59,679 nucleotides of DNA from Desulfosudis oleivorans. GTDB lineage: Bacteria > Desulfobacterota > Desulfobacteria > Desulfobacterales > SURF-7. Position 1 is the first letter of the stretch; every line of letters begins with the position of its first letter. The position numbers and the translations under genes are program-made. Shown in pieces: positions 41,334-59,679 of the stretch. Below the pieces are notes generated by a model that worked only from the letters and a program-made list of their open reading frames with translations, had not been told where the DNA came from and ran no database searches. The DNA is taken from positions 13,303 to 72,981 of the forward strand of contig DYJD01000033.1 in NCBI GenBank assembly GCA_020723325.1. The letters run 5' to 3'.

Positions 41334-44300
41334 ATGGTCAGATTGATCCCATGGCATGTAAAGTCGCTTGTGACATTGACGGTAGGGCTCAGCTTAATCA
41401 CCAGCTTGGGGATCGGACTTGCTACTGCTGCGGATGTCGTTGCACCCTCCAAGGCCAATATTTATGAGCTGACAGTTAGAAATATCGGTGTGACAGACAT
41501 CAAAAACGCCGGTATTGCTTTTTCAATAACTCAAAATCCATTTGATCTGATTCAAATCACCGGCGTGACGCCGCCAACCGCTGATATTCCCGCCGGAGGC
41601 AAGCAGATCTTTGAGATACGATTTGATGTTGATTGCCCCCCTGAAGATACAAATGAAATAAAAGTTGCAGAGTTTCAATTTGCCATCGGGAAAACCACAC
41701 CAGGGCCTTTATATGTCAGCCAATGCGGCTTGGATCCTCATGATTGTGAGGGATTGAAGGGACGTTTTTCCGTTTGGATCGCATTCTCAAATTGTTACAA
41801 ATGTGAAAATAAAGAGCTGATATTAAAAACGGCCGAAGAGATCGGGCTTTGCAACCAGTGCGTCAATGGACGTATTGAACCAAAGCTTACAAAAGAGGAT
41901 TTATGTTATCGCTATGAATGCAACCCGCTGGATGGAAGCACGAAAGAAGTTGCCAAGTCTCCTCCCTTTTTTGCTAGATGCATCAAATGGACTTGCGATA
42001 AAAGAGCTGGGTTCATACCTGAATATCAAATGGGGTGCGATCATGTGGATGATAACGAGAGCCCGAACCCGGAGACTCAATCAAAAGGCTTGATGCCCGT
42101 TTTCGATTCAGAAGCACCAATCAGTTTGTTGAGAAGTGGATTCTATACACAAGCCGCATTGCTTCCAGGATTGATTGGCGAACATGTCAACGGCGTGCCG
42201 GTGGATTCTGTACCCACGGATATTGGGAAACATCCGGTTCTGATTATTCCAAGCGGTGGATTATACGGAATGGACAACCTGGCCGCTCTAAAAAGCAGTC
42301 TTGAAGGGTATGTGGAAGCCGGCGGCACCCTCATCGTCTTCACTCAACAACATGGATATGAATATGACATTATTCCCGGAAAATTGGCAGGCTATGGCTG
42401 GAATGAGGATGAAAGCTGCCAGTGGAAATCCATGTATGTGGATACATATCATCAGATTTTGAGCAGTATTAACAAGACCACCTGCGACGCGGGGGTGGAC
42501 GGTTATTTCACTGATTGGCCCGAGGAAGCCACAATTCTCCTCCGACGCGCGAAAAATGACATGCCATGTATGCTCTTGTATCCCCATGGACAAGGACGGG
42601 TAATCGCGACAACTATGTATGAAGACTGGGCAATGGGCAATGGCCAGTCAACCGGGGATGGCCGAAGGATCGTCAGGGATATGCTGCGCTGGGCGCAGAA
42701 ACCCGCGGACTTGCCTGAGTTTTCACCAGGAAATCCAATTGCTCTTTCCAGCGGCCTAACCAACCAGGTTGCCGAACCCAGCACTTTTGCTGAAATCACC
42801 ATACTGAATCCGGACAGTCAAATAATCCGGACAGAGATCCTTGAAAAGCATATTGAGCCGGGTCAAACCGATACTGTCGCTTTTTCTGTTGAGAATATTC
42901 CAGGCGATTTGGGGATATGGACGGTCAAAGCGGTTCTCCTGAATGGCGATCATATACCCATCCAAGCTGAAGCCCCGGCAGATCGTTTTGTTGTCAGTGA
43001 TCCGCCCCAAAGTATCAAGATAAAAGAAATCAGTTTTTCTGTAAATTCGAAAGCTGAGGAATACCTTATCGGTACCGAGGCTGAATTCACGGTTACAGTC
43101 TGGAACCATGGTGTAACGGAACGAAGGATCACAGTATGCTCCAATTTCATGCATCATTTCTGGGAGAGCGGGCACAATCAGATTTACGATACCCAGGCCT
43201 TCATATTGATAGTACCGCCTGGCGGGATGCAGGCCCACAGCATCAAGGTTCCGGTATTCACTATGGATAATTGCTGGCTTCATTTTTACGATGAAAACAG
43301 GAAACTGATTGGGGCGGCCAACCGTGGTTTTGATGTAGCGCAAAATCAAATCAATCAACTGTTGATGCTGAAAACCGATAAAACAAGCTACATTAGCGGC
43401 GAAACGGTTGTCCTAACAGCGGATTATATAGGATTGCATGATTGGCACACTATCACCGACCTGCGTGTAACGGTTACTGATCCGCAAGGGCAGACGATTT
43501 TCCATGAGTCGCGTCCTATAAATTTGAGCGCGACGATGGATCAAGAAGTGTTCGAATTCCCAGTGGGAATTCCGGCAAAGGCGGGTATCTATAAGGTGAA
43601 AGCGGCCTTATATAATTTTGATAATAATTTGGTTGCACAACAAGCCGAAGCAATTTTCGATGTTCCGAAATACCAGTTATCAATCACACCGGTTGTTCCC
43701 AATGCCCTCCAGCCGGGTGTAAGTTCTGTCGCATTCAATATTGATAATACCACTTCCGGAGGAGTTATTTCAGACTCCGCCGGTCAATTTATTGTCTCCT
43801 TGATTGGGCCGAACAGGAGCTTGGTTTGGACTGAACAAAAAATTGTAGATTTGCATGAAGGACAACATTTTAATTTTGACTTCCCGTTAGTATCAGATGA
43901 GTTTATTAAATTTGGTGAATATTATTATGCTTATTCCCTATACTTTGAAGGCTCTCATTTTCAAACCAGTAAAACAATTTTATGCCTGGCAACTCTTAAA
44001 GGCGGCTTGGACCGGCAGGAGTATCGTGCCGGGGAAATACTGTCGCTTGATGTGACCGCCGCCAGCATCGGCAGAATCATATTGAAAGATATGAATTTGA
44101 ATCTTTCGATACCGGAGTTCGCGGTGGATGAGAACAGGACTGTATCTCTCATTCCTGGTCAGAGCAGTAATACCAGCTTCTCCGTGACAATCCCTGAATC
44201 CGCCTCGCCAGGTCTCCATTTTGCCGTAGTTACATTGAGCAAGAACGGGTCAACGCAACAGGCTTCCTACTGGTTCCACGTGCCGCCTTCAAAAATCCAT

Positions 44301-47300
44301 CTAAATTTTACCGGTAACAATTATCATGTCGGCGAAGCCATCAGCGTGGATCTGCTGAATTCCGGCGGTGCAAATTCCGACACGGAATATGCGCTCGCCT
44401 TATTGGACGTTTTTGAGCAAGAGATCCATGGGGTCAATGGAACCCTGTCTCTTCCCATTGACCAAACCAGACAAATATCCATGGTGGTTCCAGCGTCGGC
44501 CAATTCCGGTATTTATCAAGTCAAGGCACAAGTAAATGATACTGCTACCGGCGAGTATCGCGAATATTTTCATTCGATCATTGTAGCCAATGAAAATACT
44601 GCGGAAGTCGCGCTGCAAGTGCAAACAGACCAGGAGATATATTTCCAGGCCGATCCTAAAACCATCTCCGCCGATCTCTATCTTTTACAGGGAAGTCTTG
44701 AAAACGGGAACCTGAAACTGGAAATCGATAGCGTTGAAAAAATCTGGACCAGCCAGGAAGACTGGCAAACCGGCCTGTTGAATCTGGTGGATATCGATTC
44801 CCAGCCGGGTGATGTGCTGCCGGCCATCCCGGAAGGGTCCGAGGGGGATCGCACCGGTACATACGCCCCGGACGGCAGACTCAAATGGACGTTTGATTCA
44901 GGATGCTTGTCGGAGTCGACGCCTGTTCTCGGCAGTGACGGCACCATCTATGCGAATTTGAGAACCCTTGGCGAAGTGTCATACGGCGTGCTTTATGCTG
45001 TTCGGTCGGACGGCAGTCCTGGTTGGACTTTCCAAACCAAGGAATCCTCATATTATTCTCCAGTTATAGGCAATGATGGGGCTGTCTATATCAGTGTCGA
45101 CTACACTCTTTTTGCTGTGAAGGAAGGGGAAGAATTATGGAGGTTTAACAGTAATGGGGGGTGCTTCCTGGCCCCTGCTGTTGGAATGGATGGAACAGTA
45201 TATGCGGTTACAACAACCGGTACAATCATTGCTCTGTATCCGGATGGCGTGGAAAAGTGGCGCTATGAGCAGGCAGGATACATGTATTTCCCACCAGTCG
45301 TTGGAGCGGACGGTAATCTATATCTGGCAATAGATAAAGATGATATTTACTATATCCAGGCCATCCATCCCAACGGTACTGAAGCTTGGCTGTATGATGC
45401 CGGGGCTTGGTTTAGAAGTTCTCCGGAAGTAGACTCAGGCGGAACGATATATATCTGGACGAAAGATAACAGTTTAAATGCCATTAACCCGGATGGCTTC
45501 CTTAAATGGAAATACACCGCAGGAGAATATACAGGTGGCGGGCCCTCATTTGGACCGGACGGAAAAATATATTTCAGTGCCGGTGATCAAATAACTGCTC
45601 TCACTCCGGATGGTAGCGAAATTTGGCGTTCTTGGGTGAATGGCAGCGTTATGGATCGACCTGTTCTGGGGGCGGACAGCACCCTATATTTTACGGCCAA
45701 CGGTTATTACTGGGGTTATGACTATAGCGTAATCGGTGCACTGAACCAGGATGGCACCCTGCATTGGACCTATCGGATTCCAGGGCAAGTTGAGGGAGGA
45801 GTGGTGCTAAGTGGTTATGGTGAAGCACTGGCGGTGGGAAGGAACGGCCTTTTTTATTCTGTGGGCGGCCAAGGGCGTTCCATCACCCTGAAAGTCGACG
45901 CCGGCCATTCCCTTGCCTGGGGCCAGATCAAGCTGTTTGCCGAAGAAGCCTGGGAATCCCGGATTCAGGTTTCCACCCGCACTGCTGAAAACGAAACGGA
46001 ATTGGTCGATTCTTTCTGGACCAGTTATCCACCCAGCGGTCAGATCGGCTCGGCTGCCTTTGCGGCCGATATTGCTTCTAAACCCGGTCGCTGGCTGGAG
46101 ATCGAATTGAATTTTGAAAACGCCTATCGCTGGGGCGATCAGGTGGGGGATTGTTTTCCGATTGTACATGCCTTGATGGTGAGCAGCGAAACCGGCAGTG
46201 TTGTCTGGTCCCAGGACCTGCCCATAACCCTCGCCGGAAGCAGCCACCTTGATGTTCCTTTGGAGACACAGCTTCCGGAAGGACGCTATGTCCTGAAAGG
46301 AATTTTGACCAATTCCCTGTCCCAGCAAGTGGGCATGGATAATCATGTTTTCTATATCAATGACGATTATATCCGCCTCACCTTTGACACGGACAAGCAG
46401 CTTTACCGTCCCGGCGACGCGGTGCAGGTGAGCGGCCGCGTGGTCAACACCCTGAGCGAGCCGGCTTCCGGCCGTAGCTTGTCCTTTCAGATCAAAGGCA
46501 TGGTGATCTATGATCAGATCATTGATCTGGCCGGGCTGGGCGAATATCCGTTCACGTTCAGCTTTATCGCGCCGGAGAGCACTTCGGTCCTGACCGGCAC
46601 CCTGGACACCCGCCAGATTCCTGTATCGGTAGTGGTGGGTAAACCGGCCCTTGCGGTAAATCTATCACCGAGCCAAGCCGGCCGGGAGACTTTTGACCTT
46701 GCCATGACCCTCGCCAACAGCGGAAATATGGAGGCGAAAGTGAACGCGGCCGTGGCCGGCAGTACGTATCCCCTGAGCATTCCGGCCGGACAAAGCCGGG
46801 TGCTGACCATCCCCTACAGCATTACGGCCGATACCACCTTGCCGGTGGTCATCTCCGGTGACGTGGACCAGACCTTCCAGCATCATATCGCCTTCTGCGA
46901 GCAGGTGGCGGTGTCGGTTTCGCCGGCGGCATTTTACGGGGAAGGCCTTGTGGAGATCCCCTATCAAGTGAAGAACACGGGTTGCTCCAGCAGCAAGACG
47001 GACATTGTCTTTAACCTGAACGGTCAACTTGTGACCAAACCCGTTGTTGTACCGGCCGGCGGCACTCTTTCCGATTCATTGACCTTCAGTATCGGCTCCG
47101 GTGAATACAGTCTGTCGCATCAATCTGTTTTCGGCTCCGGCAGCGTTCCGGTCAAGGTGTTGGGCACGGATCAGTTGGAGATGCTGGTGGATGTGGGCTA
47201 TCCGCATCCTTCCAAGGTGCTGCTGCTTACGGACAGCTCTGCCCAAACCGATGTGGAGGGCGCTCTTTTAAAGGACGGCATGGCAATGGATGTGGACAGG

Positions 47301-50300
47301 GTCCTTGTCTCCGAGTGGGACGGGACGCATCCGGATCTGAAAGCGTATGAGGTGGTGGTCCTTACCGACAGCAGCCGCAACGGTACAATCCTGCCGGTCC
47401 TTGGCCGGGCGGCCCTCAAGGAGTTTGTGGACCAGGGCGGCGGACTGGTCATTTTGGAACAAGTCCTGGCGGAAAACACGGGAAACAGCGGCCTTGCCGA
47501 TCTGTTCCTGTTCGATCCCGCCGGCTATGAAACAGTGCAGGGAGAGGACACCCTCGCCGTTGTCCCGGATCATCCCATTACCGTTGGAATAACCGCGCCC
47601 ATCCACCTGCCCCTGATATCCGGCAATGCCGGCGCCTTGCGGCCGGACGCCGCAGCGGTTGTGACCGGAACATTGCTGCCCAATGCCGTGGCTGTAAAAG
47701 CCATGGGCCTGGGCCGCATTGTCCAGTTCGCGGCAGCGGACAGTACAATGCCGGGTGTGTTTTCCACCAATCCGGCCATGCATACCCTGCTCGGGAATGC
47801 TGTGCACTGGAGCGCCCGCCGCGCGGCTCCGGGCAAGATCAATGCCGCCGTGCTGGTCCGCAATGCCGGCAGCAATGATTTTATCGGCGACCTTGCGATT
47901 ACTACGGATTTTTCGGAGCTCGTCGAGAATCTCACCCTGGCTGTGGGGCAGAGCCGGGTTGTTCAATTTGAGCTTGACACGACGAATCTGTCCCCAGGGG
48001 TTTACCCATTGAGCGCTCGGGTATCCAAAATCGGCCTGCCGGTGCAGCAGATCCGCAAGGACATTGAAGTCAGCGGCCCGCGCTTTGAACCGGAAGATCT
48101 GCCGCTGTTGCCGTCCTATGCCGCCGGTGCCCAAGGCTCCATGACCTTTACAGTGCGTAATGTGGGCATGACCGGCGGTCCGGCGGAAGTGCGTTTTACC
48201 TTTCTGGATGTTCTATATGAGCTCCGGCATGTCTGGCTGGAACCAGGAGAGGGTAAGACTCTCACCTATAATTTCATGTTACCGGATGACCTTTCGGCCC
48301 ATGATTTCATGGCCACCCTCTTCCTGGAAGGCCAAGCCTTTGACATTCCCTTCCGGCTCAACGGGGTAAGCATGGAGGCTTTGGCCACCTTGGATCAACC
48401 GGTTTATAATATCGGCGACACAGCCGAGCTGACCTTGGAGGTCGTCAACCATAGCAGTCTCCATCCGGATATGATAGCCCGGGTGGTTGCCGATTTTGAA
48501 AATTATGAGCAAAGCTTCACCCTGGGTGACAGCGCCGCCCTGAAATTCTACATCCCCATTACGGCAACCACGCCGGAGCAGTTCACCTATGGCGTGTACA
48601 TGGCCGCAGGCCGCTCGGTGTATCTCAACACTATCCCGGTGCGGCTGCGCGACCCGTTCATCACCCTCTGCCCGGACAAAGCCGCATATTTACCGGGGGA
48701 GACTGTGACCATGCAGGTGCTCACGGCAGAGACTGGCGATCTAGCTGTATCTGCCCCGGGCTTTAACGAAATCCTGTTGGTTGCAGGGGATACTACCTTC
48801 AGTTTTGTCCTGCCGACAGAAATGATGTCGGACCGTTATCCTGTGGAATATCAACTGGGTGAACACACCGGCGTCTGTCCCATCTATGTCAACGGTTTAA
48901 ATGCCAGGGTGCTGGAAGCCGGGCTTAACAAGCCGCTGTATGAACCCCAGGACAATTTGAACCTTGCCCTGGTGGTGGATGTTTCCCAGTCCATGGATGT
49001 GCTTCTGAAAGGCTGGGTGTACCGGCCGGGTGCCGAATTCCAGCCCTTGTTTGAAACCGGGTGCGCTCTGCCGGTCGGCGAAAGCCGGGTCACCATCGAT
49101 CCGGTCGAGTTCAGCGTAACTCAGGCCGGTGTATACTACCTGATCTACACTTTGTACAAGGCCGACACCCTGCTGGAAGTTTTTACTGCTGCGGAAGCTT
49201 TTGAAGTGCAGTCCGCGGCCATCACCGGCTTACACCTGGAGCAGTCGGTCTATGGCGTAACCGAAGCGGTGTCTATTCAGGTGGACACCTTTGCCTGCAC
49301 CCCGGTTGCCGGCCGGATCACCCTGCTGCTCAACGGCGGTGTGGCGGTGGAGCAGGATGAGAATCTGACAGGGGCGGGGACCATCCTGTTTGATTTGGGG
49401 CTTCTGCCCATGGGTAAATATGATCTGACCGCCAGGCTCACGGCCGGCCAACTGGTTTCGCAAAAAAGCGCGGCCTTCAGCGTAACCGATCAAGCCGCGC
49501 CGGCTAAACCCACCGGGCTTGCCGCTGATACCATCGGGAACGTGACCACCTTGACCTGGAATCCCAATCCGGAGAGCGATCTGTTGGGTTATCATGTCTA
49601 TCGCAACGGCGTGCGCCTCAATGCCGTGGCCCTTACAGGTGCTGCTTTTGCGGATGAGGGCTATTTTGTGGAAGCCGCGCAGGAATACCGGATAACGGCC
49701 ATGGACCGGGCCGGCAATGAAAGCCCGCCCTCGGAAACAGCCACGGTTCTGCGGGACGGAACGCCGCCTTCCATCACCCTCAGTCCGGCCGTGGAAACCT
49801 ATGCACAGCAAGCGGTAACCGTCACATACACGGTAACGGACAGCCATGATCCTGACCCGCTGGTGACCGCGAGCCATCCCTCGCCCACGATGTTGTATCG
49901 GTCCGGTGATTATCTGGTAAGGGTTCAGGCCCAGGATGCGGCCGGCAATATTGCGGAAAGATCCGTTCAGATCCATATCAGCATTCCGGGCGACACCGAT
50001 GGCGACGGCATGGCCGATGCCTGGGAGCTGCAATATTTCGGCACCCTTACAAGAGACGGCTCCGGCGACCATGACGGCGACGGGCTCACCGACCTGGCTG
50101 AATACCAGAGCGGCACAGACCCGGTTTCCAGCAATGCGCCGCCCATGCCCCAGGTGATGTATCCCCTGGTGGGCGGGGAAGTCACGGACCGCAACCCGGA
50201 ACTTGCCATTGAAAACAGCACCGACCCCAACGGCGATGCGGTTTTCTATACCTTTGAAGTCTATGCCGATGAGCAGATGACCGAACTGGTTGCCCGGCAG

Positions 50301-53069
50301 GCGGACCTGCCCCAGGCTGATTCCTATACGGCCTGGACCGTGCCGCCGGCCCTGAGCGACAACACCTGGTACCACTGGCGGGTGCGGGCCGGGGACGGGA
50401 TCTGTTTCAGCAGTTGGGTATACGGCCGTTTCTTTGTCAATACGGCCAACGACCCGCCGGCGGAATTCCTGGTAAGCCGGCCCATGGACCAGACCGAAGT
50501 GAGCACCCGCACGCCGGTGCTGGAAGTGGGCAACAGCCTGGATCCGGATCACGATGTGCTGTCCTACCGCTTTGAAATCTATGCCGACGCTGAAATGACC
50601 GTCCTTGCGGCCGCAAGCGCGGGAATACCCGCCGGTGACAACGGCGTCACGGCCTGGATGGTGGACACCCTGTTGAATGACAATGCCTGGTATTACTGGC
50701 AGGTGGCAGTCGCGGACGAACATGGCGCGGAAACCCGCACTGTCTTGAGCGCCTTCTTTGTGAACACCGCCAACGACGCGCCCCCGGCCCCCACCATCGC
50801 CGCGCCGGCTGACGGTGCTGAATCAGCGTCCTCGGACCTGAATCTGGTGATCAACAATGCCCTGGATGCGGACGGCGACGCCCTGGTCTACCGTTTTGCT
50901 TTGGACACCGTCAACACCTTTGACGGACCGGATCTTCTGGTTTCCGAAGACATTCCGGCCGTAGGCGCAACCACGGCCTGGCATGTAACCGGCCTGGATG
51001 ACAACACCCTTTACCACTGGCGCGTCAAGGCCTTTGACGGTCTTGCGGAAAGCCCCTGGGTCACTGGTCGATTCTTTGTCAACACGGCTAATGACGCCCC
51101 CGGCATTCCGGCCTTGAAAAATCCGGGCCTGGGCGCCTGGGTGGACACCCTGACACCCGGTCTTGAATTGCAGGCAGTGCAGGATCCGGACAGCGATTCC
51201 CTGATCTATCGTTTTGAGGTTTACGCCGACCCGGGCCTGACCATGCTCGTGGCTGCCGGTCAGGCGGATGTCCCGCAATGGGTGGTGGAGAACAGCCTCA
51301 ATGATAACCATTGGTATTACTGGCGCGCCCGGGCCGTGGATGAGCACGGCGCAGCCTCTGCCTGGACCGAGACCTTCCGCTTTTTCACGGATGAAAACGG
51401 TGTGGATGATCCGCCGGCCGTCACCATAATAACACCGGCCGCGGATCAGCGCACCAATACCGATACTTTCCTGATCCGCTGGGAGGACAGTGATCCGGAC
51501 AGCAACGCCGGCATGGCCCTTTATTATGACACGGATGCGACCGGCGCCGACGGCCTACCCATTGTTCAGGGGCTGCTGGAAGACGGGGAGGGCAGCGACG
51601 ACACCTGGCTCTGGGGCACCGGCGGTCTTGCGGACGGGATCTATTATGTGTACGCCGTCATCAGTGACGGGAACGCGCCTGCCGCAATCAGTTACAGCCC
51701 TGGCGCCCTGATCATCGACCGTACAGCGCCCATGGTCATCGCTGTCCCGGCCGGCGGTATTTATGAGAGCGCGCAACTGGTCACCCTCGCAGCCGATGAG
51801 GCCGGGACCATCTATTACACTTTGGACGGCAGCCAGCCTTCCACCAGCGCCATTCCCTATGCGGCGCCCATTGAGCTCAGCGAAGATACGGTGCTGAAAT
51901 TCCTGGCCGTGGATGCGGCCGGCAATTCAAGCGCGGTGGGGCTCGAGCAGTACACCATCCGCATCCCCAACCTGTTGCCCCTGGCCGAGGCCGGCGAGAA
52001 CCGCACGATCTATCTGGGCGAGACGGTCAACCTGGACGGCAGCGGCAGCACGGATCCGGACAACGGGCCCATGCCCTTGACTTACCGCTGGTATTTTACC
52101 GGCCTGCCTGCCGGCAGCACCCTGACGGACGCGGATATCTCCACTTACAACAGTGTCCAGGCCGCTTTTGTGCCGGATGTGATCGGCGCTTACGGCGTGG
52201 CCCTGGAAGTCTCTGACGGCAAGGACCGCGCCACGGACAGCATCACCGTCAACGTGGCGCTGAATGATGGGTTTGATATAAGGACCATCGCCCTGTTTGC
52301 CGGCGAGCAAATTCATCTGGAACCCGGCGCCCGGGTCAACAGCGGCCATGTGGTGGTTCTGGATCAGGATCAATGGGGGCTGCGTGAACTTTTCAAACGA
52401 GAGCTCATCGTGGGCAACGGCGCCTATACCGCTGATGGGACTGTCTTGTTCGGTGATACGGTGCATATCAAGCCCGGCGCTTCCGTGAATGAGGTCCATT
52501 ACAACGAATTGCGCAACAAGGGCACCATCCGCGGGGCGGCGGTCACGCCCCTATCCCTGCCGCCTGATCTGGTATTGCCGGATTTTATAACCCCCAGTCC
52601 GGGCACGGCCAAAATCGAGGTTCAAGCCGGCCAGGAGCGCATTCTCGCGCCCGGCGCCTATGGCGATGTGCTCCTCAAGGCCCAGTCCAGACTGGTTTTC
52701 ACCGGTGGTGTTTATCACCTGCAAAGCCTGGATGTGGGCAACGACAATTGCCGGGTGCTGTTTACCGCCCCCACGGATCTCATGATCGCGGGCGGTATTG
52801 GGCCGGGCCAGGGCGCCTACATCGGCCCGTCCGCCGGTTCCGGTATCGGCGCCAAGGATATCCGGATTTATGTCCAGGGCAAAAAGAAATGGGGAGAACC
52901 CATGCTCATGGCGGTGATGATCGGCAACCACAACACCCTGAAGGCCAACATTTATGCCTTGAACGGCCGGATCTGGGTGAAAAACAACAGTACCGTGGAA
53001 GGGGCCTTGATCGGCAAGCAGATCCTGATCGGTATTCAGACCCAGGTCAGCCTGGCTAGTGGATTTTGA
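41334..53069 (+). CDS. Giant secreted multi-domain protein (3,911 residues)
   Basis: A Sec signal (residues 1-33) is followed in order by a Cys-rich N-terminal region (about 100-240), a DUF4350/GATase-like domain (250-455), many Ig/CARDB-like beta domains, a PQQ-like beta-propeller (1177-1512, repeats such as PVLGSDGTIYA and PVIGNDGAVYISV) and a second DUF4350-like domain (1950-2160). More Ig domains, a fibronectin III domain (2722-2807) and a calcium-binding GDTDGDGMADAWE segment (2885-2935) follow. Then come four tandem repeats of about 105 residues ending FFVNTANDxP (2935-3360), a chitobiase-like Ig domain (3467-3542), PKD (3546-3642) and a beta-solenoid-like C-terminus. It must be a surface or extracellular fibre. 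RBS GGAGGAAAT. The secreted RHS gene follows 122 bases later, probably in the same operon. Confidence 0.85.
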   Translation: MVRLIPWHVKSLVTLTVGLSLITSLGIGLATAADVVAPSKANIYELTVRNIGVTDIKNAGIAFSITQNPFDLIQITGVTPPTADIPAGGKQIFEIRFDVDCPPEDTNEIKVAEFQFAIGKTTPGPLYVSQCGLDPHDCEGLKGRFSVWIAFSNCYKCENKELILKTAEEIGLCNQCVNGRIEPKLTKEDLCYRYECNPLDGSTKEVAKSPPFFARCIKWTCDKRAGFIPEYQMGCDHVDDNESPNPETQSKGLMPVFDSEAPISLLRSGFYTQAALLPGLIGEHVNGVPVDSVPTDIGKHPVLIIPSGGLYGMDNLAALKSSLEGYVEAGGTLIVFTQQHGYEYDIIPGKLAGYGWNEDESCQWKSMYVDTYHQILSSINKTTCDAGVDGYFTDWPEEATILLRRAKNDMPCMLLYPHGQGRVIATTMYEDWAMGNGQSTGDGRRIVRDMLRWAQKPADLPEFSPGNPIALSSGLTNQVAEPSTFAEITILNPDSQIIRTEILEKHIEPGQTDTVAFSVENIPGDLGIWTVKAVLLNGDHIPIQAEAPADRFVVSDPPQSIKIKEISFSVNSKAEEYLIGTEAEFTVTVWNHGVTERRITVCSNFMHHFWESGHNQIYDTQAFILIVPPGGMQAHSIKVPVFTMDNCWLHFYDENRKLIGAANRGFDVAQNQINQLLMLKTDKTSYISGETVVLTADYIGLHDWHTITDLRVTVTDPQGQTIFHESRPINLSATMDQEVFEFPVGIPAKAGIYKVKAALYNFDNNLVAQQAEAIFDVPKYQLSITPVVPNALQPGVSSVAFNIDNTTSGGVISDSAGQFIVSLIGPNRSLVWTEQKIVDLHEGQHFNFDFPLVSDEFIKFGEYYYAYSLYFEGSHFQTSKTILCLATLKGGLDRQEYRAGEILSLDVTAASIGRIILKDMNLNLSIPEFAVDENRTVSLIPGQSSNTSFSVTIPESASPGLHFAVVTLSKNGSTQQASYWFHVPPSKIHLNFTGNNYHVGEAISVDLLNSGGANSDTEYALALLDVFEQEIHGVNGTLSLPIDQTRQISMVVPASANSGIYQVKAQVNDTATGEYREYFHSIIVANENTAEVALQVQTDQEIYFQADPKTISADLYLLQGSLENGNLKLEIDSVEKIWTSQEDWQTGLLNLVDIDSQPGDVLPAIPEGSEGDRTGTYAPDGRLKWTFDSGCLSESTPVLGSDGTIYANLRTLGEVSYGVLYAVRSDGSPGWTFQTKESSYYSPVIGNDGAVYISVDYTLFAVKEGEELWRFNSNGGCFLAPAVGMDGTVYAVTTTGTIIALYPDGVEKWRYEQAGYMYFPPVVGADGNLYLAIDKDDIYYIQAIHPNGTEAWLYDAGAWFRSSPEVDSGGTIYIWTKDNSLNAINPDGFLKWKYTAGEYTGGGPSFGPDGKIYFSAGDQITALTPDGSEIWRSWVNGSVMDRPVLGADSTLYFTANGYYWGYDYSVIGALNQDGTLHWTYRIPGQVEGGVVLSGYGEALAVGRNGLFYSVGGQGRSITLKVDAGHSLAWGQIKLFAEEAWESRIQVSTRTAENETELVDSFWTSYPPSGQIGSAAFAADIASKPGRWLEIELNFENAYRWGDQVGDCFPIVHALMVSSETGSVVWSQDLPITLAGSSHLDVPLETQLPEGRYVLKGILTNSLSQQVGMDNHVFYINDDYIRLTFDTDKQLYRPGDAVQVSGRVVNTLSEPASGRSLSFQIKGMVIYDQIIDLAGLGEYPFTFSFIAPESTSVLTGTLDTRQIPVSVVVGKPALAVNLSPSQAGRETFDLAMTLANSGNMEAKVNAAVAGSTYPLSIPAGQSRVLTIPYSITADTTLPVVISGDVDQTFQHHIAFCEQVAVSVSPAAFYGEGLVEIPYQVKNTGCSSSKTDIVFNLNGQLVTKPVVVPAGGTLSDSLTFSIGSGEYSLSHQSVFGSGSVPVKVLGTDQLEMLVDVGYPHPSKVLLLTDSSAQTDVEGALLKDGMAMDVDRVLVSEWDGTHPDLKAYEVVVLTDSSRNGTILPVLGRAALKEFVDQGGGLVILEQVLAENTGNSGLADLFLFDPAGYETVQGEDTLAVVPDHPITVGITAPIHLPLISGNAGALRPDAAAVVTGTLLPNAVAVKAMGLGRIVQFAAADSTMPGVFSTNPAMHTLLGNAVHWSARRAAPGKINAAVLVRNAGSNDFIGDLAITTDFSELVENLTLAVGQSRVVQFELDTTNLSPGVYPLSARVSKIGLPVQQIRKDIEVSGPRFEPEDLPLLPSYAAGAQGSMTFTVRNVGMTGGPAEVRFTFLDVLYELRHVWLEPGEGKTLTYNFMLPDDLSAHDFMATLFLEGQAFDIPFRLNGVSMEALATLDQPVYNIGDTAELTLEVVNHSSLHPDMIARVVADFENYEQSFTLGDSAALKFYIPITATTPEQFTYGVYMAAGRSVYLNTIPVRLRDPFITLCPDKAAYLPGETVTMQVLTAETGDLAVSAPGFNEILLVAGDTTFSFVLPTEMMSDRYPVEYQLGEHTGVCPIYVNGLNARVLEAGLNKPLYEPQDNLNLALVVDVSQSMDVLLKGWVYRPGAEFQPLFETGCALPVGESRVTIDPVEFSVTQAGVYYLIYTLYKADTLLEVFTAAEAFEVQSAAITGLHLEQSVYGVTEAVSIQVDTFACTPVAGRITLLLNGGVAVEQDENLTGAGTILFDLGLLPMGKYDLTARLTAGQLVSQKSAAFSVTDQAAPAKPTGLAADTIGNVTTLTWNPNPESDLLGYHVYRNGVRLNAVALTGAAFADEGYFVEAAQEYRITAMDRAGNESPPSETATVLRDGTPPSITLSPAVETYAQQAVTVTYTVTDSHDPDPLVTASHPSPTMLYRSGDYLVRVQAQDAAGNIAERSVQIHISIPGDTDGDGMADAWELQYFGTLTRDGSGDHDGDGLTDLAEYQSGTDPVSSNAPPMPQVMYPLVGGEVTDRNPELAIENSTDPNGDAVFYTFEVYADEQMTELVARQADLPQADSYTAWTVPPALSDNTWYHWRVRAGDGICFSSWVYGRFFVNTANDPPAEFLVSRPMDQTEVSTRTPVLEVGNSLDPDHDVLSYRFEIYADAEMTVLAAASAGIPAGDNGVTAWMVDTLLNDNAWYYWQVAVADEHGAETRTVLSAFFVNTANDAPPAPTIAAPADGAESASSDLNLVINNALDADGDALVYRFALDTVNTFDGPDLLVSEDIPAVGATTAWHVTGLDDNTLYHWRVKAFDGLAESPWVTGRFFVNTANDAPGIPALKNPGLGAWVDTLTPGLELQAVQDPDSDSLIYRFEVYADPGLTMLVAAGQADVPQWVVENSLNDNHWYYWRARAVDEHGAASAWTETFRFFTDENGVDDPPAVTIITPAADQRTNTDTFLIRWEDSDPDSNAGMALYYDTDATGADGLPIVQGLLEDGEGSDDTWLWGTGGLADGIYYVYAVISDGNAPAAISYSPGALIIDRTAPMVIAVPAGGIYESAQLVTLAADEAGTIYYTLDGSQPSTSAIPYAAPIELSEDTVLKFLAVDAAGNSSAVGLEQYTIRIPNLLPLAEAGENRTIYLGETVNLDGSGSTDPDNGPMPLTYRWYFTGLPAGSTLTDADISTYNSVQAAFVPDVIGAYGVALEVSDGKDRATDSITVNVALNDGFDIRTIALFAGEQIHLEPGARVNSGHVVVLDQDQWGLRELFKRELIVGNGAYTADGTVLFGDTVHIKPGASVNEVHYNELRNKGTIRGAAVTPLSLPPDLVLPDFITPSPGTAKIEVQAGQERILAPGAYGDVLLKAQSRLVFTGGVYHLQSLDVGNDNCRVLFTAPTDLMIAGGIGPGQGAYIGPSAGSGIGAKDIRIYVQGKKKWGEPMLMAVMIGNHNTLKANIYALNGRIWVKNNSTVEGALIGKQILIGIQTQVSLASGF

Positions 53070-53191: not shown

Positions 53192-56100
53192 ATGAATCGG
53201 TTGACAACAAACAAGCAGTTTTCAATAACAGTGCTTTTCTGCCTTTGCCTAATGGCCCTGGCCATGATTCCGGCAAAGTCCCATGCCGCCTTAAGCAAAA
53301 CCATCGAGATTGCCATTCCTGATATCAAGCGAATTTTTTTTCCCAATCCAGCCGACAAGGAACCCTATCCCATTCCGTTCGGCAAGACCGTGGAACTCAA
53401 AGCCGATGCCGCTCTTTTGGAAGGTTTAACCCTTACCTGGTCCACTGAGACGGTCACCGAAGGCGTGAAAGCCGAACTCTCCAACCAAACCGGTTTAACC
53501 TGTACCTTTACCCCCTCGGAAAAAAGTGCCAGCGGCTATATTGCGGTCAAAGCAGCCTTCAAGGAACACCCATCGATCTGCAAGACAGTCAAAATCAAGG
53601 TCGGTTGTGATTGCGCTCATTCGGGTGAGGGGATGTGCGCGATGCCTGACAAGGAAGACATCATCCTTTCCAGTGTCAACGCTCATCTGAGCCTGGGTAA
53701 GGCGCTATCTGGTTTTTCCGCTGGAGAATTGGCCATCCTTGCCAAAACCGCCACAAAAGATCTGGCCACACCCAAGGCCCTGCAATTTTCCTCCATGGCC
53801 GGGGAGGAACAGGTGGAAGCCTTATATGGCAGCGAGACTCTTCGTCAGATCGTGGCACCCCAGACCTTTGTGGATGTGGTTGCCATCAGTAACTTCGGCT
53901 ATGAAATCCGCTTTTACGATCCTTCAGCGCGGGGAGCCAAGACCGACGGTTTCTATGTTGTGGATTCTTCCGTTGTGCCCAAAAGCGTGTGGCGCATCGA
54001 AAACCCGGATGCCTCTGAAACGGTTTTCAACCGCTTGCGACTGACCAAGATCAAAGACGGCAAGTCCATTGCCTATGAGTATATCTGGGATGCGGCCCAA
54101 GGGACTTGGTTTTTATCACGGGGCAACGGCTTAAGTGTGGAAAGTCGCTCAGAAACCACGAATGCCAGCGGCGACCGGGTGGTCACTCATACAGTCAAGG
54201 ATGATCAAAACAAGCTATCCTCCGCCACCCAGACCACTTATCACCAATATCCCTGGGGTGAGGAAGTCATCAAGACCGTCAATGATCCGGCCGGTGCGGC
54301 CCTGAATACCATAACAGATTATTACCAGGGCACCGGCAACAGCAAAATCGACGGAAAAATCAAAAGGGTTACCAACCCGGACGGTTCCTGGACCCGCTAC
54401 GAGTACGACGACAAGGGCCGCAGGCTCAAGGAGATCCACCCCTGGCTGAACAGTCCGATTATTGTGGCGGAAGGGGCGGCGCGGGTCATTTACAATGACT
54501 ATACGCCGGTGGACCCTGAAGAAATCTATCAAAGTACTGTCCAGAATATCAATATGGCAAGATATGCAGACAGCCCTCGTGCGTTAACGGAAACCATCCT
54601 GGGCCAAACGGTATCAAAAACGTTTTACGCATATCTCATTAATGATGTGAATGAACACATAGAAATCACCGAACGTTGCGCAACCCCAAGCGCTGCCTAC
54701 GGTGATCCGGGCAATCAGCGCACGGCCAGGACCCATTACGCGGCAGATTCGCATTCAACCCATGCGGGAAAAATAAGAACCGTTGTTTTTCCAGACGGCC
54801 GCATGGACAGCTATACCTATGAATCCGGAACCTATTCGCCCAATGCCGATCCGGCCTCTCCCGGCGAATTCATCTCCGGCAGCGGCCAGGACCAGCGCAC
54901 CATCATTGTCCACGGCACGGTGGATCATCCTTCCGGCATTATCGGTAAGATTACCCGCGAGATCAGCATTACCGGCGCCACGGGCCAAAGCTTGCAGGAG
55001 GAGCGCTATATCTATACGGACAGCGGTTATATACTGGTTTCCTGGACAAAGCATGAGAACGATGACTACGGCAGGCCGACGGCAACGTATGCCTCGGACG
55101 GCACGGCCACGGCAGCGGCCTGGGGCTGCTGCGGCAAGGAGTCAGAAACAGACCGGAACGGCATTACCCGCTCGTATATTTACGATGATTTGAAGCGTGT
55201 GGCCTTCATGACCAAGCACGGCATCGGCGCCCAGCCGGACATCACCACCCAGTACACCTACGACGGCTCCGGCCGCCGGTTTTCGGAAACCGTCACGGCC
55301 GGCAACATCACCCAGACCACCAGCAGCATTTACGATTCCGCCGGCCGGCTGGATTATTCCTTTGACATGGCAGGGCTGCAAACCGACTATGCCTATGAAC
55401 CCTCCGGCCTGATGACCATCGTCACCCGGCCCGGTGGTGCCACGGAAATCACCTCAAAGTTCTTGGACGGTCGCACCCAAAGCATCACCGGCAGCGGCGT
55501 GATTCCGCGCTTTTACGAATACGGCGTGAATCCGGACGGTACTCAATTCACCATCCTTTATACCGGCAGTCCGGGTTCTCCCATGTGGGAAAAGACCTTC
55601 ACGGATTTCTTGGGCCGCACCATCCGCATGGAAAAGCCGGGCTATACCGGTATTGAAGCCACTGAAAGCGTGTACGATCAGCAGGGACGCTTGGCTAAAA
55701 CCATCACAACCGGCCAGGCCGACACCCTGTATGAATACGATGAACTGGGTAACCAGGTTAAAAGCGGATTGGACATCAACGCCAGCGGAGTTCTTGAAAA
55801 CACTTCCAAGGACCGCATTAATGAAACTGAAACAACCTTTATCCAGGTGTCCGATGCCTGGTGGCAGCAGACCAGCCAGAGAGTATTTGCGGTTGATGAT
55901 TCCGGCTTGGCCACAAATGTCGCCACCCAGCGCACCCGTCTCACAGGTCTGGGCGCCGGTCTCACAGCCGAAATTGTTTCCGTCGACATCCACGACAACT
56001 GGACCGTGGCCCGCACCTTCCTGGATGCCGGCACCCAGACAGAAACCCGCACCGTGGATTATCCGGATTCTGATATCAATGCCGTTACCATGACCGTGGG

Positions 56101-58801
56101 CGGCCTGCTCTCTTCCTCAACCGGTAAGACCGGTCTCACCACGAACTACGGTTACGATGCCCTGGGCCGCCAGACCAGTATAACCGACCCACGTACCGGC
56201 ATCAGCAGCACCCATTACAATGACAAAGGCCAGGTGGATTATATCGAAGATCCGCTCCACAATCGAACCTCGTTAGCTTATGACCCCACCACGGGCCGCA
56301 AGCTGTCCGAGACCAACGCCCTCAACCTGGTTACCCGTTTTACCTATAACGACCGCGGCCAGGTCACCCATACCTGGGGCGATTCCGTCTATCCAGTGAA
56401 ATATGTTTTTGACAACTACGGCCGTATGGGTGAGATGCATACCTATCGCAACGGCACAGGCTGGGACACCGAAACATGGCCCTTGGGCCAGGAAGGCCCG
56501 GCCGATATCACCAAATGGCGATATCACGAGCCCAGCGGTCTTCTGGAAGAAAAAGAGGACGCCGCCGGTAAGATCACTTCCTATACCTATACCTTCGCCG
56601 CTAAACTCCAAACCCGCACCTGGGCGCGCCAGGAGAACGGCAATCCCATCGTGACTACCTACGGCTATGATCCCAACACCGGCGAGCTTTTGTCCATTGA
56701 CTACAGCGATACCACCCCCGATATTTCTTTTACCTATGATCGCCTGGGCCGCCAGCACACCGTCACCGATGCCGCAGGCAGCCGCACCTTTGCCTACAAC
56801 AAATTACAGCTTTCTTCCGAAACTATGCTCGGCCTGATCAATAAAACCGTCACCCGCACCTATGCCGCCACTGGCGTCGTGGGCCGTCCCACCGGCTTTA
56901 ATACCGGCAGCGACTACAGCATCACCTATGGCTTTGACCCCACCGGCCGGTTTAATACCCTAACCTGGAATGTCTCCGGCAATACTCAAACAGGCACATA
57001 TACCTATGAACCTCAATCAGATCTACTGAAGACTCTACAGGTCGGTGGTTATCAGACCACCAACACCTACGAACCCCATCGTAATCTGCGCACCCAGATC
57101 AAAAATGAACTGGGCGGCACATTGGTCTCTCAATACGATTACCATTACGATGCCCTAGGCCGCCGGGAATCGGTCCAAAACTCCGGCATCGCCTTTACAG
57201 TTGCAGCCTTCAACAAGTTCGGTTATGATGACCGCAATCAAGTAACCGAATCCTCCCGGTATACCGGCACGACTATCGACGACCTGACTAACCCGGTTCC
57301 AGCCGAATACCGGGGATACGAATACGACCCGATCGGCAACCGCAAAATGACAACCAAAGCAAACGCAACCGACACCTATACCGCTAACCCGTTGAACCAG
57401 TATACCCAGGTTGCCGGAGACGACTCCCAAACCCTTGGATACGATTTTGACGGCAATCTGACCGATACGGTTGTCAACGGCATCGGCAGGAAACTCACCT
57501 ACAACGCCGAAAACCGCTTAATCGCCGTTGAACCTCAAAGTCCTATCGACGGCAACACGAAAGTTGAATTTGTCTATGACTATATGGGCCGAAGGGTCAA
57601 AAAATTCGTTTATGCTTTTTCTTCCGACTCCTGGCTCCTGACTTCTGAATACTTGTTTCTATACGATAGCTGGAACCTCATAGAAGAAACCAAACTCTCC
57701 GGCACCACCGAAACCACCCGCTACTTCGTCTGGGGTCTTGATCTGAGCCAGAGCCTCCAAGGCGCCGGCGGCATCGGCGGCCTTATAGAAGTAGTTGACG
57801 GCTCTTCAAGATACGAATACTTTTACGACGGCAACGGCAATGTAGGCCAACTCGTAAACGCCGCCTCCAGCAGAATTGCAGCCCAGTATGAGTATGACCC
57901 ATACGGTAACCCGACCAATGCCGTTGGCGATTACGCGAGCACTAATCCATTTAAATTCAGCACAAAATACTTCGATACCGAGACGGAGCTTTATTATTAC
58001 GGGTACAGGTACTACTCTGCAGAACTTGGTAGATGGATTAACCGGGATCCGATAGAAGAAAAAGGCGGCAGTAATTTATATGTCGCATTTTTAAACAATC
58101 CAATAGATGGAATTGACAATCTCGGATTATTTAAAACTGAATATCACGAGGAAATAATTAAAAAGGCTTTTGCTAATGAAATTGAAGAGATATATCTAAC
58201 ATATCTTCTTGGCCAAGATGCCCTTGTCGATATTACACGACAATTAAATGGTGAATATCATTATGATAATAATGATATTCAGGCAGGAAATCAGCTTATT
58301 GAAAATGCTTTTAAGAAGATTGAAGAACTTAATGACATGAAATTAAGTATTGCAGACAAGCGAATTGAAAATTTAATTAAATGTACATTAAATTTGGATC
58401 ATTTTGCTGCAATCACACACGTCTCCGCAGACTTTTTTTCACATACTAACGCAGTTGAAAGAATGATCGATCCGGAGGTTGCATCTAAAACAAAACTATC
58501 CTCTGGTTATTTTAGTATTTCTAATCATATCGTTAAGAATTTTTTACTTTCGTATCCAGAAGATATTTCATATTGGGTTTATGTGCATTCCGCTTTCTAT
58601 GAAGGCATATATTCAAAACTGAAATTTACTCACCACCAACTAGAAAAAGATTCTCCTACAAGTCTTGAAGGTCGTATTATTGCAGGAGGCGCCTCACTTT
58701 TTAATTTAGCCGAATCAGAAGCCGTGAAATCTTTGAAATTAGGACTTGAAGAATTTAAAAAAAGAGCACCATGTATTTGGGCTTCTATTAAAAAGAATTA
58801 A
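53192..58801 (+). CDS. Secreted RHS-repeat protein with HET-C-like C-terminal effector domain
   Basis: The 1,869-residue protein has a Sec signal (1-33, ending SHA), an Ig-like N-terminal region, and an adhesin-like segment. Long RHS/YD repeats run from about residue 390 to 1560 (GSWTRYEYDDKGRRLKEI, NYGYDALGRQTSITDPRTG). The conserved RHS core is at 1566-1647 (YYGYRYYSAELGRWINRDPI, then DNLG). The last 222 residues differ completely and are AT-rich. They contain H1737-x5-H1743-x3-D1747-x3-H1751 (THVSADFFSHTN), recalling the HET-C/zinc phospholipase C pattern. RHS shells enclose C-terminal toxins. Export by Sec rather than T6SS is implied. The small gene 3 bases downstream may give immunity. 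Confidence 0.88.
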   Translation: MNRLTTNKQFSITVLFCLCLMALAMIPAKSHAALSKTIEIAIPDIKRIFFPNPADKEPYPIPFGKTVELKADAALLEGLTLTWSTETVTEGVKAELSNQTGLTCTFTPSEKSASGYIAVKAAFKEHPSICKTVKIKVGCDCAHSGEGMCAMPDKEDIILSSVNAHLSLGKALSGFSAGELAILAKTATKDLATPKALQFSSMAGEEQVEALYGSETLRQIVAPQTFVDVVAISNFGYEIRFYDPSARGAKTDGFYVVDSSVVPKSVWRIENPDASETVFNRLRLTKIKDGKSIAYEYIWDAAQGTWFLSRGNGLSVESRSETTNASGDRVVTHTVKDDQNKLSSATQTTYHQYPWGEEVIKTVNDPAGAALNTITDYYQGTGNSKIDGKIKRVTNPDGSWTRYEYDDKGRRLKEIHPWLNSPIIVAEGAARVIYNDYTPVDPEEIYQSTVQNINMARYADSPRALTETILGQTVSKTFYAYLINDVNEHIEITERCATPSAAYGDPGNQRTARTHYAADSHSTHAGKIRTVVFPDGRMDSYTYESGTYSPNADPASPGEFISGSGQDQRTIIVHGTVDHPSGIIGKITREISITGATGQSLQEERYIYTDSGYILVSWTKHENDDYGRPTATYASDGTATAAAWGCCGKESETDRNGITRSYIYDDLKRVAFMTKHGIGAQPDITTQYTYDGSGRRFSETVTAGNITQTTSSIYDSAGRLDYSFDMAGLQTDYAYEPSGLMTIVTRPGGATEITSKFLDGRTQSITGSGVIPRFYEYGVNPDGTQFTILYTGSPGSPMWEKTFTDFLGRTIRMEKPGYTGIEATESVYDQQGRLAKTITTGQADTLYEYDELGNQVKSGLDINASGVLENTSKDRINETETTFIQVSDAWWQQTSQRVFAVDDSGLATNVATQRTRLTGLGAGLTAEIVSVDIHDNWTVARTFLDAGTQTETRTVDYPDSDINAVTMTVGGLLSSSTGKTGLTTNYGYDALGRQTSITDPRTGISSTHYNDKGQVDYIEDPLHNRTSLAYDPTTGRKLSETNALNLVTRFTYNDRGQVTHTWGDSVYPVKYVFDNYGRMGEMHTYRNGTGWDTETWPLGQEGPADITKWRYHEPSGLLEEKEDAAGKITSYTYTFAAKLQTRTWARQENGNPIVTTYGYDPNTGELLSIDYSDTTPDISFTYDRLGRQHTVTDAAGSRTFAYNKLQLSSETMLGLINKTVTRTYAATGVVGRPTGFNTGSDYSITYGFDPTGRFNTLTWNVSGNTQTGTYTYEPQSDLLKTLQVGGYQTTNTYEPHRNLRTQIKNELGGTLVSQYDYHYDALGRRESVQNSGIAFTVAAFNKFGYDDRNQVTESSRYTGTTIDDLTNPVPAEYRGYEYDPIGNRKMTTKANATDTYTANPLNQYTQVAGDDSQTLGYDFDGNLTDTVVNGIGRKLTYNAENRLIAVEPQSPIDGNTKVEFVYDYMGRRVKKFVYAFSSDSWLLTSEYLFLYDSWNLIEETKLSGTTETTRYFVWGLDLSQSLQGAGGIGGLIEVVDGSSRYEYFYDGNGNVGQLVNAASSRIAAQYEYDPYGNPTNAVGDYASTNPFKFSTKYFDTETELYYYGYRYYSAELGRWINRDPIEEKGGSNLYVAFLNNPIDGIDNLGLFKTEYHEEIIKKAFANEIEEIYLTYLLGQDALVDITRQLNGEYHYDNNDIQAGNQLIENAFKKIEELNDMKLSIADKRIENLIKCTLNLDHFAAITHVSADFFSHTNAVERMIDPEVASKTKLSSGYFSISNHIVKNFLLSYPEDISYWVYVHSAFYEGIYSKLKFTHHQLEKDSPTSLEGRIIAGGASLFNLAESEAVKSLKLGLEEFKKRAPCIWASIKKN

Positions 58802-58804
58802 AAA

Positions 58805-59386
58805 ATGCATAAAAATCAAAAAATATTAATTATAGTCATTGTATTTTTATTCATACTTTCGTTAATACCTTATCCTACTATCGCACTTAATTCTTTCAAT
58901 TTATTTTTAGTGGATGAGGCGGGAAAGCCGATTAAAAATGTATCAGGAACTCTTTATTTCCATCTGTATCCTAGTCTAAAGAGTGAAACTAAACAATTTG
59001 TCTTAAATGAGAATGGCGAGGTTCATTTTGAAGAACAAAATGTTTGGATGAATTGGTTTAAACGAAGAGGGTATAATTTACTAAGTATGGTTTCTCGTGG
59101 AGGATGGAGTAGTAGTCACTCGAAAATAACATTAAAAGTGCCTAAATCAAACTTTACTGCTAAGAATATTAGATTTGCGAAAATAAATCAAAACAAATAC
59201 AATGAATCCATCTCTTTTGCTCCGGACTTCAAATTTGCAATTACACAGTATGAGGACGAAGACGGGCCAATGATATATATTAATACAAGTATTGGTAAGG
59301 GCTTAGATACAATTGAGCTTAATTTGTTAAAATCCAGGAAATTGAATATTAAAGAACTTAAGGTTGTTTTTGATACAAAAAAATGA
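58805..59386 (+). CDS. Candidate immunity protein for the RHS effector
   Basis: This 193-residue AT-rich gene starts 3 bases after the RHS stop. A single hydrophobic segment (residues 7-28) is followed by a beta-rich domain (FNLFLVDEAGKPIKNVSGTL, a carboxypeptidase-regulatory-like strand pattern). The protein would face the periplasm or outside, where a secreted effector acts. I recognise no family. An immunity role is inferred from position, size, matching base composition and the polymorphic-toxin layout. An alternative is an unrelated lipoprotein-like accessory protein. The RBS is only an A/G-rich stretch, so translational coupling is likely. Confidence 0.6.
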   Translation: MHKNQKILIIVIVFLFILSLIPYPTIALNSFNLFLVDEAGKPIKNVSGTLYFHLYPSLKSETKQFVLNENGEVHFEEQNVWMNWFKRRGYNLLSMVSRGGWSSSHSKITLKVPKSNFTAKNIRFAKINQNKYNESISFAPDFKFAITQYEDEDGPMIYINTSIGKGLDTIELNLLKSRKLNIKELKVVFDTKK

Positions 59387-59679
59387 AGGATCAGACACAA
59401 GGTCAGACGCAATGATTTTTTGATATTTTAAATAGTTGATCATGAAAAACATAAGGGCATCAGGGTCAGTTCTTGAATATTGAAAATGACTATACTTCCC
59501 GACAGGTTTTTTCTTTTTAACAGCTAAAAACGGCAGCATTCCGCTTCGGGGGAACCGTGATGGGCTGCGCGGGTGGCTGCGGGCGCAAGGGCGGCGGGGC
59601 GAAGGGTCGAAGGCGAAGGGCGAAGGGGGTCGCCCATTAAAGGGCGAGTCAAGTGAAAAAACACCTCTCCTATCGAAAA
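59387..59679. other. Non-coding right end with repeats
   Basis: Contains GGATCAGACACAAGGTCAGACG (a short near-tandem repeat) and GGGTCAGTTCTTGAATATTG, a phrase I associate with transposase-flanking sequence in such genomes. A G-rich run of GGCGAAGGG units lies at about 59596-59630, ended by GGGTCGCCC. No gene is visible. Confidence 0.4.

What the first reader, a model, noticed from the sequence alone, without database searches (positions are those of the whole stretch)
58110..59386. New-looking secreted RHS toxin with a HET-C-like metal domain and adjacent immunity candidate
The RHS core ends at DNLG. A 222-residue AT-rich domain unlike the rest of the protein follows, with His/Asp spacing H-x5-H-x3-D-x3-H (THVSADFFSHTN) like HET-C or zinc-dependent phospholipase C proteins. 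A membrane-anchored or exported 193-residue protein starts 3 bases later with the same base composition. The layout is that of a polymorphic toxin and its immunity gene, but the toxin fold and a periplasm-facing immunity protein in an Sec-exported RHS system look unusual. Fold assignment is from motif resemblance only.
Basis: partly seen in the sequence, partly recalled or inferred. Interest (0 to 1): 0.78.

Follow-up and report, generated by a model that had tools for sequence, protein, structure and literature searches.

The report
Secreted RHS toxin with HET-C-like tip
A bacterial secreted toxin gene ends in a swappable tip that looks like a metal-dependent lipid- or nucleic-acid-cutting domain of a kind already described in such toxins, and the gene right behind it makes a membrane-anchored protein that probably protects the producer; the protector family is the new part.

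Summary
The layout is real. An RHS gene with a signal-like start (53192-58801) ends in an AT-rich 222-aa tip (58133-58801); a 193-aa gene for an N-terminally hydrophobic protein starts three bases later (58805-59386). The tip carries H-x5-H-x3-D-x3-H and, in order, the elements published for the polymorphic-toxin domain Tox-HET-C (main elements: 8 of 300,000 shuffles). It matches Pfam VWA7_N weakly (E=1.9e-4 alone, 0.014 within the whole protein, below cut-off both times). No closer relative of the tip turned up. A relative of the 193-aa protein (E=4.7e-5) lies directly behind an RHS gene with a different shell (SpvB/TcdB type) and a tip weakly matching zinc-dependent phospholipase C. That single recurrence supports toxin/immunity pairing. 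Zhang et al. 2012 already list HET-C as an exported polymorphic toxin and Sec-exported RHS toxins, but no immunity partner for HET-C. Both structure predictions failed. Most likely: a divergent HET-C/phospholipase-type toxin acting in the envelope, with an envelope-anchored immunity protein. Activity, substrate and protection are untested.

The parts
53192..58132 (+). RHS/YD-repeat shell with a signal-peptide-like N-terminus (MNRLTTNKQFSITVLFCLCLMALAMIPAKSHA) and Rhs-associated core ending at residue 1646
   Evidence: ORF; PF05593 E=6.6e-29 with 12 stretches; TIGR03696 E=6.2e-21 over residues 1568-1646. The signal peptide is read by eye.
58133..58801 (+). 222-aa HET-C/zinc-PLC-like C-terminal tip (putative toxin)
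   Evidence: PF25107 VWA7_N E=1.9e-4, 21.3 bits, below the 27.5-bit cut-off; 15.2 bits and E=0.014 when the whole RHS protein is scanned; ordered motif; GC 0.320 against 0.533 in the shell
58145..58147 (+). H5 of the tip, N-terminal metal-ligand candidate in YHEEIIKKAF
   Evidence: aligned with an N-terminal His in all 6 sequences of alignment A4
58259..58267 (+). H43-Y-D45, the HxD element
   Evidence: element listed for Tox-HET-C in PMC3482391
58400..58459 (+). H90-x5-H96-x3-D100-x3-H104-x-N106-x2-E109, putative metal site
   Evidence: sequence; shuffles
58502..58507 (+). S124-G125, the [ST]G element
58805..59386 (+). 193-aa candidate immunity protein: N-terminal signal/anchor, then a region that may be beta-rich
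   Evidence: hydrophobic region within residues 1-31; strands in a low-confidence model; relative in L047 behind a PLC-like RHS tip
59455..59679 (+). repeat-bearing tail downstream of the cassette up to the contig end; pieces recur elsewhere in the genome, including behind two other tip cassettes

Best explanation
This is a polymorphic RHS toxin with its immunity gene. The RHS protein is exported by Sec (and perhaps a type II secretion system) and carries at its C-terminus a divergent member of the HET-C / zinc-dependent phospholipase C / S1-P1 superfamily. In a susceptible neighbour the tip would use a His/Asp-bound metal site to hydrolyse a phosphodiester bond, more likely in membrane phospholipids than in nucleic acid. 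The 193-aa protein, held in the envelope by its N-terminal hydrophobic segment with an Ig-like beta domain facing the periplasm, would bind the tip and protect the producer and its kin. Shown here: gene layout, motif, composition break, weak family match, and one recurrence of the protector gene behind another RHS gene with a PLC-like tip. Inferred: fold of both proteins, metal binding, substrate, site of action, export route and protection.
For: Ordered Tox-HET-C elements in 8 of 300,000 shuffles. VWA7_N E=1.9e-4 over tip residues 11-109; of nine shuffled copies and one reversed copy the best Pfam E-value was 0.071. Among 389 genomes of the order searched with VWA7_N the window tip is the second-best match (E=0.0046) behind another RHS tip, L038 (E=0.0011). 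AT-rich cassette on a GC-richer shell, as also in L048 (0.33-0.37 against mostly 0.6-0.7). The P0003 relative in G420 has E=4.7e-5; pairwise E=1e-8, 5e-6 with the hydrophobic segment removed. It lies directly behind an RHS tip matching Zn_dep_PLPC at E=0.001 as tip alone, 0.0085 with the core attached, below cut-off, on a shell with SpvB, TcdB_toxin_midN and FG-GAP domains. RHS genes with HET-C/PLC-like tips also occur in L038 (tip alone: DUF6765 27.6 bits, just above its cut-off; VWA7_N 5.1e-5 and Het-C 0.014, below) and L082 (Zn_dep_PLPC 0.0063, below cut-off). Behind the window, L022, L038, L047 and L082 tips lies an ORF with an N-terminal hydrophobic or multi-spanning region, 5 of 5. GspD over cut-off at 2 places and no T6SS_VipA match at E<=0.001 in the genome.
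Against: The tip is below the curated cut-off for every family, and VWA7_N gives loose matches elsewhere: at E<=10 in 5 of 14 control genomes. It is not related by BLAST or hhalign to the L047 tip: BLASTP 0.052 in the wrong register, hhalign 0.14, and 0.1 with A1. Against a profile of the other five tips it scores 7.1 bits, which 3 of 1,000 shuffles equal or beat, and the aligned part is the N-terminal half, not the HxxxDxxxH site; with sub-sets the counts are 12 (L022+L038), 1 (L047+L081+L082), 14 (L022) and 293 (L038) of 1,000. Both structure models are unusable. Hydrophobic or exported-looking proteins also follow one of two C49 tips and the C89 tip of the same genome, which show no HET-C match, so that feature is not specific. 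L081 is a stand-alone secreted relative of the L047 tip without an RHS shell and is left out of the 5 of 5. Only one independent recurrence of the pair was found in 389 genomes.
Confidence: 0.64

Rival explanations
1. The tip is an RHS toxin of the same superfamily acting as a metal-dependent nuclease (S1/P1-like) in the target cytoplasm, and the 193-aa protein protects indirectly or blocks entry.
For: The superfamily holds both phospholipases and S1-P1 nucleases, and Zhang et al. 2012 leave both open for HET-C (PMC3482391, passages).
Against: An N-terminally anchored partner fits an envelope site of action better; immunity proteins to cytoplasmic nucleases are normally cytosolic (general knowledge). 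Hydrophobic or exported-looking ORFs follow 5 of 5 HET-C/PLC-like tips counted, though not only such tips.
Confidence: 0.17
2. The tip is an RHS toxin of an unrelated fold, and the HET-C motif is coincidental.
For: Sub-threshold family score; no significant profile match to other HET-C/PLC-like tips; no usable structure.
Against: Ordered motif in 8 of 300,000 shuffles and in 1 of 65 long frames of the window; a VWA7_N match that ten shuffled or reversed copies do not approach; the partner-gene relative lies behind a PLC-like tip.
Confidence: 0.14
3. The 193-aa gene is not an immunity gene but an unrelated secreted or cargo gene carried on the same AT-rich insert.
For: The match to L047 is weak (28% identity) and may reflect a common Ig-like / carboxypeptidase-regulatory type of domain: L047's protein hits DUF6795, Big_1 and CarboxypepD_reg, all below cut-off, and DUF6795 rings loosely in 62 of 395 genomes of the phylum, none over cut-off.
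Against: Three-base spacing; the same gene order behind a PLC-like tip on another shell, the only other match in 389 genomes.
Confidence: 0.17

Closest known systems
Tox-HET-C polymorphic-toxin domain (Zhang et al. 2012, PMC3482391; passages seen)
   Same: Domain of exported polymorphic toxins (T2SS, T6SS, PVC listed); motif set H, [DE], HxD, HxxxDxxxH, Nxx[DE], [ST]G present in order
   Different: Pfam Het-C itself (PF07217) does not match the tip. Their row lists a PVC metallopeptidase as companion, not RHS repeats, and '-' for immunity; here an RHS shell and a candidate immunity gene are present.
VWA7 N-terminal domain, PF25107
   Same: Only Pfam match of the tip, E=1.9e-4, residues 11-109 including the HxxxDxxxH site
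   Different: Below the curated cut-off. That VWA7 is the vertebrate MHC class III HET-C protein mentioned by Zhang et al. is recalled, not tested.
Zinc-dependent phospholipase C, PF00882
   Same: The L047 and L082 RHS tips match it weakly (0.001 and 0.0063, below cut-off); shared N-terminal His and HxxxD in alignment A4
   Different: The window tip itself does not match PF00882, nor does L081
YdjM toxins (PMC8557891; passages seen)
   Same: RHS tip of the alpha-toxin/HET-C superfamily, proposed there as a phospholipase toxin
   Different: Predominantly coupled to a beta-sandwich domain within the protein; here the possibly beta-rich protein is a separate downstream gene. No YdjM match was listed for the tip.
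VgrG proteins with C-terminal Het-C domains in Acinetobacter and Stenotrophomonas (PMC6838775, PMC13055248; passages seen)
   Same: HET-C as extra domain of a secreted toxin
   Different: T6SS route; the window genome has no T6SS_VipA match

Membership tests
RHS polymorphic toxin | YD/RHS repeats ending in the Rhs-associated core, followed by a variable tip | tested here: met
RHS polymorphic toxin | Export signal | tested here: inconclusive
   N-terminal signal-like sequence read by eye only; GspD present, T6SS_VipA not found. The route is not shown.
RHS polymorphic toxin | Immunity gene next to the tip | tested here: inconclusive
   193-aa gene three bases downstream; relative behind a PLC-like tip elsewhere; protection untested
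Tox-HET-C | Ordered motif H, [DE], HxD, HxxxDxxxH, Nxx[DE], [ST]G | tested here: met
   motif from PMC3482391
Tox-HET-C | Curated profile match (Pfam Het-C PF07217 or VWA7_N PF25107 over cut-off) | tested here: not met
   PF25107 21.3 bits against a cut-off of 27.5; PF07217 not listed. I therefore call it HET-C-like, not a HET-C member.
Tox-HET-C | All-alpha fold with a clustered metal site | tested here: inconclusive
   AlphaFold model all-helical but mean pLDDT 39.6, not usable
Zinc-dependent phospholipase C / S1-P1 nuclease | Profile match to PF00882 and zinc-dependent hydrolysis | tested here: not met
   No PF00882 match for the window tip; hydrolysis not testable with these tools
DUF6795 (PF20598) for the 193-aa protein | Profile match over cut-off | tested here: not met
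   No match for P0003; its relative in L047 scores 22.9 bits against 27.4

The most novel reading that the evidence does not exclude
The 193-aa protein and its L047 relative are the first members of an immunity family for HET-C/zinc-PLC-type toxins: envelope-anchored proteins with an Ig-like beta domain that travel with such tips between unrelated RHS shells (a plain signal-peptide RHS shell here, an SpvB/TcdB-type shell in L048). This would place HET-C toxin action in the envelope, point to phospholipase rather than nuclease activity, and provide a natural inhibitor with which to test what HET-C domains do.
Probability: 0.38. Interest if true: 0.58.

Novelty: new member of a known kind. Interest (0 to 1): 0.4.

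Why it matters
HET-C domains are described in fungal self/non-self killing, in bacterial toxins and in an animal surface protein, and in the passages I saw their activity is a prediction (phospholipase or nuclease; PMC3482391). A dedicated immunity protein that sits in the envelope would say where the domain acts and provide an inhibitor to study it with. If the pairing fails, what remains is one more divergent RHS tip.

Tried and rejected
Relatives of the tip: no match in plasmids or phages, and none in viral contigs or genome contigs, where the scans need short exact peptide matches and so see close relatives only. In the order sample 13 of 389 genomes matched at E<=0.05 (own plus 12); (frames over 80 aa only) showed no HxxxDxxxH site that I could assign to the matched frame of those 12, so I treat them as chance. 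In the phylum sample 2 of 395 matched at E<=0.01, own plus one at 0.0037, whose ORF looks like a penicillin-binding protein by eye; rejected. VWA7_N in the order sample: 10 of 389 at E<=0.05, none over cut-off; of the 9 beyond the own genome I read only L038.

Relatives of the 193-aa protein: no match in plasmids or viral contigs; its L047 relative has none in plasmids. It was not searched in phages or genome contigs. In the own genome the only other hit is a short stretch in the hydrophobic segment, E=1.18. L082 and L038 tips have no match in plasmids. The one further genome-contig scan went to the L047 tip: 3 loci.

Second HET-C-like tip in the same genome: L022 (contig C80 end) has HxxxDxxxH and VWA7_N E=0.015, below cut-off, followed by a 118-aa and a 195-aa exported-looking ORF. 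No RHS core precedes it before the contig ends, so I do not claim it as RHS.

Solved structures: no match for the tip; P0003 only 0.25-0.28; L047-family profile one Phospholipase C chain at 0.43, not significant; L038 tip nothing relevant; the P0003/L047 profile gave mostly light-harvesting peptides, i.e. the hydrophobic segment. PADLOC none; PHROGs best 0.12. The DUF6795 scan of the phylum was too unspecific to test pairing and its 30 loci were not read. A guess that the C89 tip is a peptidase was not borne out by Pfam. The promoter/terminator scan was uninformative in this AT-rich stretch. Fold searches were not run because both models were poor.
Full report
What is there. The RHS gene runs 53192-58801 (1869 aa). 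It starts with a signal-peptide-like sequence (read by eye), carries RHS repeats (PF05593, E=6.6e-29) and the Rhs-associated core at residues 1568-1646 (TIGR03696). The last 222 residues (58133-58801) form a separate stretch with GC 0.320 against 0.533 for the shell; a 193-aa gene with GC 0.302 starts three bases after its stop. The window ends where the contig ends, 293 bases after the 193-aa gene.

The tip. Alone, HxxxDxxxH is not rare (1,628 of 100,000 shuffles). The ordered set published for Tox-HET-C (H, [DE], HxD, HxxxDxxxH, Nxx[DE], [ST]G; PMC3482391, passages) is met by H5, E6/E7, H43-Y-D45, H96-D100-H104, N106-E109 and S124-G125. Its main elements in order (the trivial [DE] left out, spacing to Nxx[DE] set by me at 0-6) occur in 8 of 300,000 shuffles and in 1 of 65 long frames of the window. 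The one Pfam match of the tip is VWA7_N (PF25107), E=1.9e-4, 21.3 bits, below the 27.5-bit cut-off, over residues 11-109; scanned within the whole RHS protein it is only E=0.014. Nine shuffled copies and one reversed copy gave a best Pfam E-value of 0.071.

Limits on the tip assignment. NCBIfam's best listed match is 0.064 to an unrelated family. A profile from five other HET-C/PLC-like tips scores the window tip at 7.1 bits, equalled or beaten by 3 of 1,000 shuffles, and the aligned part is the N-terminal half; with sub-sets the numbers are 12, 1, 14 and 293 of 1,000. hhalign against the three-sequence L047 family gives E=0.14. VWA7_N also rings loosely at E<=10 in 5 of 14 control genomes. 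The single-sequence AlphaFold model has mean pLDDT 39.6 and says nothing on the fold. I therefore call the tip HET-C-like rather than a HET-C member.

Relatives. No sequence-level relative of the tip was found in plasmids, phages, viral contigs or genome contigs, nor convincingly in 395 phylum or 389 order genomes. A relative of the 193-aa protein was found in 1 of the 388 other genomes of the order sample: G420, E=4.7e-5. The pairwise match is E=1e-8, or 5e-6 without the hydrophobic segment. It begins 28 bases (first listed start) to 40 bases (first ATG) after an RHS gene whose tip reads ...GMALHPVMDSTSPSHQDF... and matches Zn_dep_PLPC at E=0.001 as tip alone and 0.0085 with the core attached, below cut-off. 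That RHS protein has SpvB, FG-GAP and TcdB_toxin_midN domains, so it is a different shell class. Its cassette is AT-rich too (0.33-0.37, shell mostly 0.6-0.7). A contig of the same length with an identical match appears in genome contigs as DYEU01000003.1, titled as a Desulfatibacillum MAG. The tool's kinship column puts G420 in the same order as the window genome; I did not establish the window organism.

Further tips. L082 (Propionivibrio MAG) and L038 (same order) are RHS genes with tips in the same superfamily by weak profile matches; L081 (Oligoflexia MAG) is a stand-alone secreted-looking protein 38% identical to the L047 tip, without a Pfam match. L022 is a second HET-C-like tip in the window's own genome, at a contig end. 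Behind each of window, L022, L038, L047 and L082 lies an ORF with an N-terminal hydrophobic or multi-spanning region (5 of 5); in L038 and L082 these are short ORFs (77 and 87 aa) without other support. L081 is left out of this count. The feature is not specific: one of two C49 tips and the C89 tip of the own genome, without HET-C matches, are followed by such proteins as well.

Mechanism. The superfamily cuts phosphodiester bonds with a His/Asp metal site, in phospholipids or nucleic acids. The partner is predicted to sit in the envelope, so an envelope substrate, hence phospholipid, is the better guess. The idea of an Ig-like beta domain in the partner rests on strands in a low-confidence model and on sub-threshold matches of its L047 relative. 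Export by Sec, perhaps with type II secretion, fits the signal-like N-terminus, two GspD matches over cut-off and the lack of a T6SS_VipA match. Binding and protection by the partner are inferred from layout and one recurrence.

Known or new. Signal-peptide toxins with RHS repeats, HET-C as an exported polymorphic-toxin domain, and an immunity family with a signal peptide and lipobox (Imm65) are in Zhang et al. 2012 (passages); the Tox-HET-C row there does not list RHS. RHS tips of the related YdjM family are in PMC8557891 (passages). The immunity cell for Tox-HET-C in Zhang's table is '-'. I saw no immunity partner for HET-C named in the passages found by these searches: 'polymorphic toxin' + 'HET-C' (5 papers listed; passages seen in 4 of them), 'Tox-HET-C' (1 paper), 'HET-C' + 'immunity protein' + 'RHS' + 'phospholipase' (3 papers), 'DUF6795' (0), 'DUF6765' (0). 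The library lacks most subscription papers. The new element is therefore the candidate immunity family, supported by one independent recurrence.

Verdict. New member of a known kind, with a candidate immunity family worth testing.

Noticed in passing
window 59455-59679: The tail behind the cassette is repeated in the genome (18 matches at E<=1 including itself), and pieces lie directly behind the C49 and C80 tip cassettes; it may mark or cause cassette exchange, or only be a common intergenic repeat.
   Followed up: partly
L022:2993-4863 (own genome, contig C80 end): Second HET-C-like tip fragment followed by two exported-looking ORFs (118 and 195 aa, the latter lipoprotein-like by eye).
   Followed up: partly
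L024:6650-7904 (own genome, C89): A very large RHS gene with an AT-rich tip (HIHIEYD by eye) followed by a 255-aa ORF with a signal-like N-terminus by eye; neither matches Pfam at E<=0.01.
   Followed up: partly
L049:5828-6838: A transposase that looks like the REP-associated Y1 type (by eye, recalled) lies downstream of a HET-C-like RHS tip and its small membrane ORF.
   Followed up: no
window 41334-53069: A 3911-aa exported-looking protein with many repeats ends 122 bases before the RHS gene and may be co-transcribed with it.
   Followed up: no
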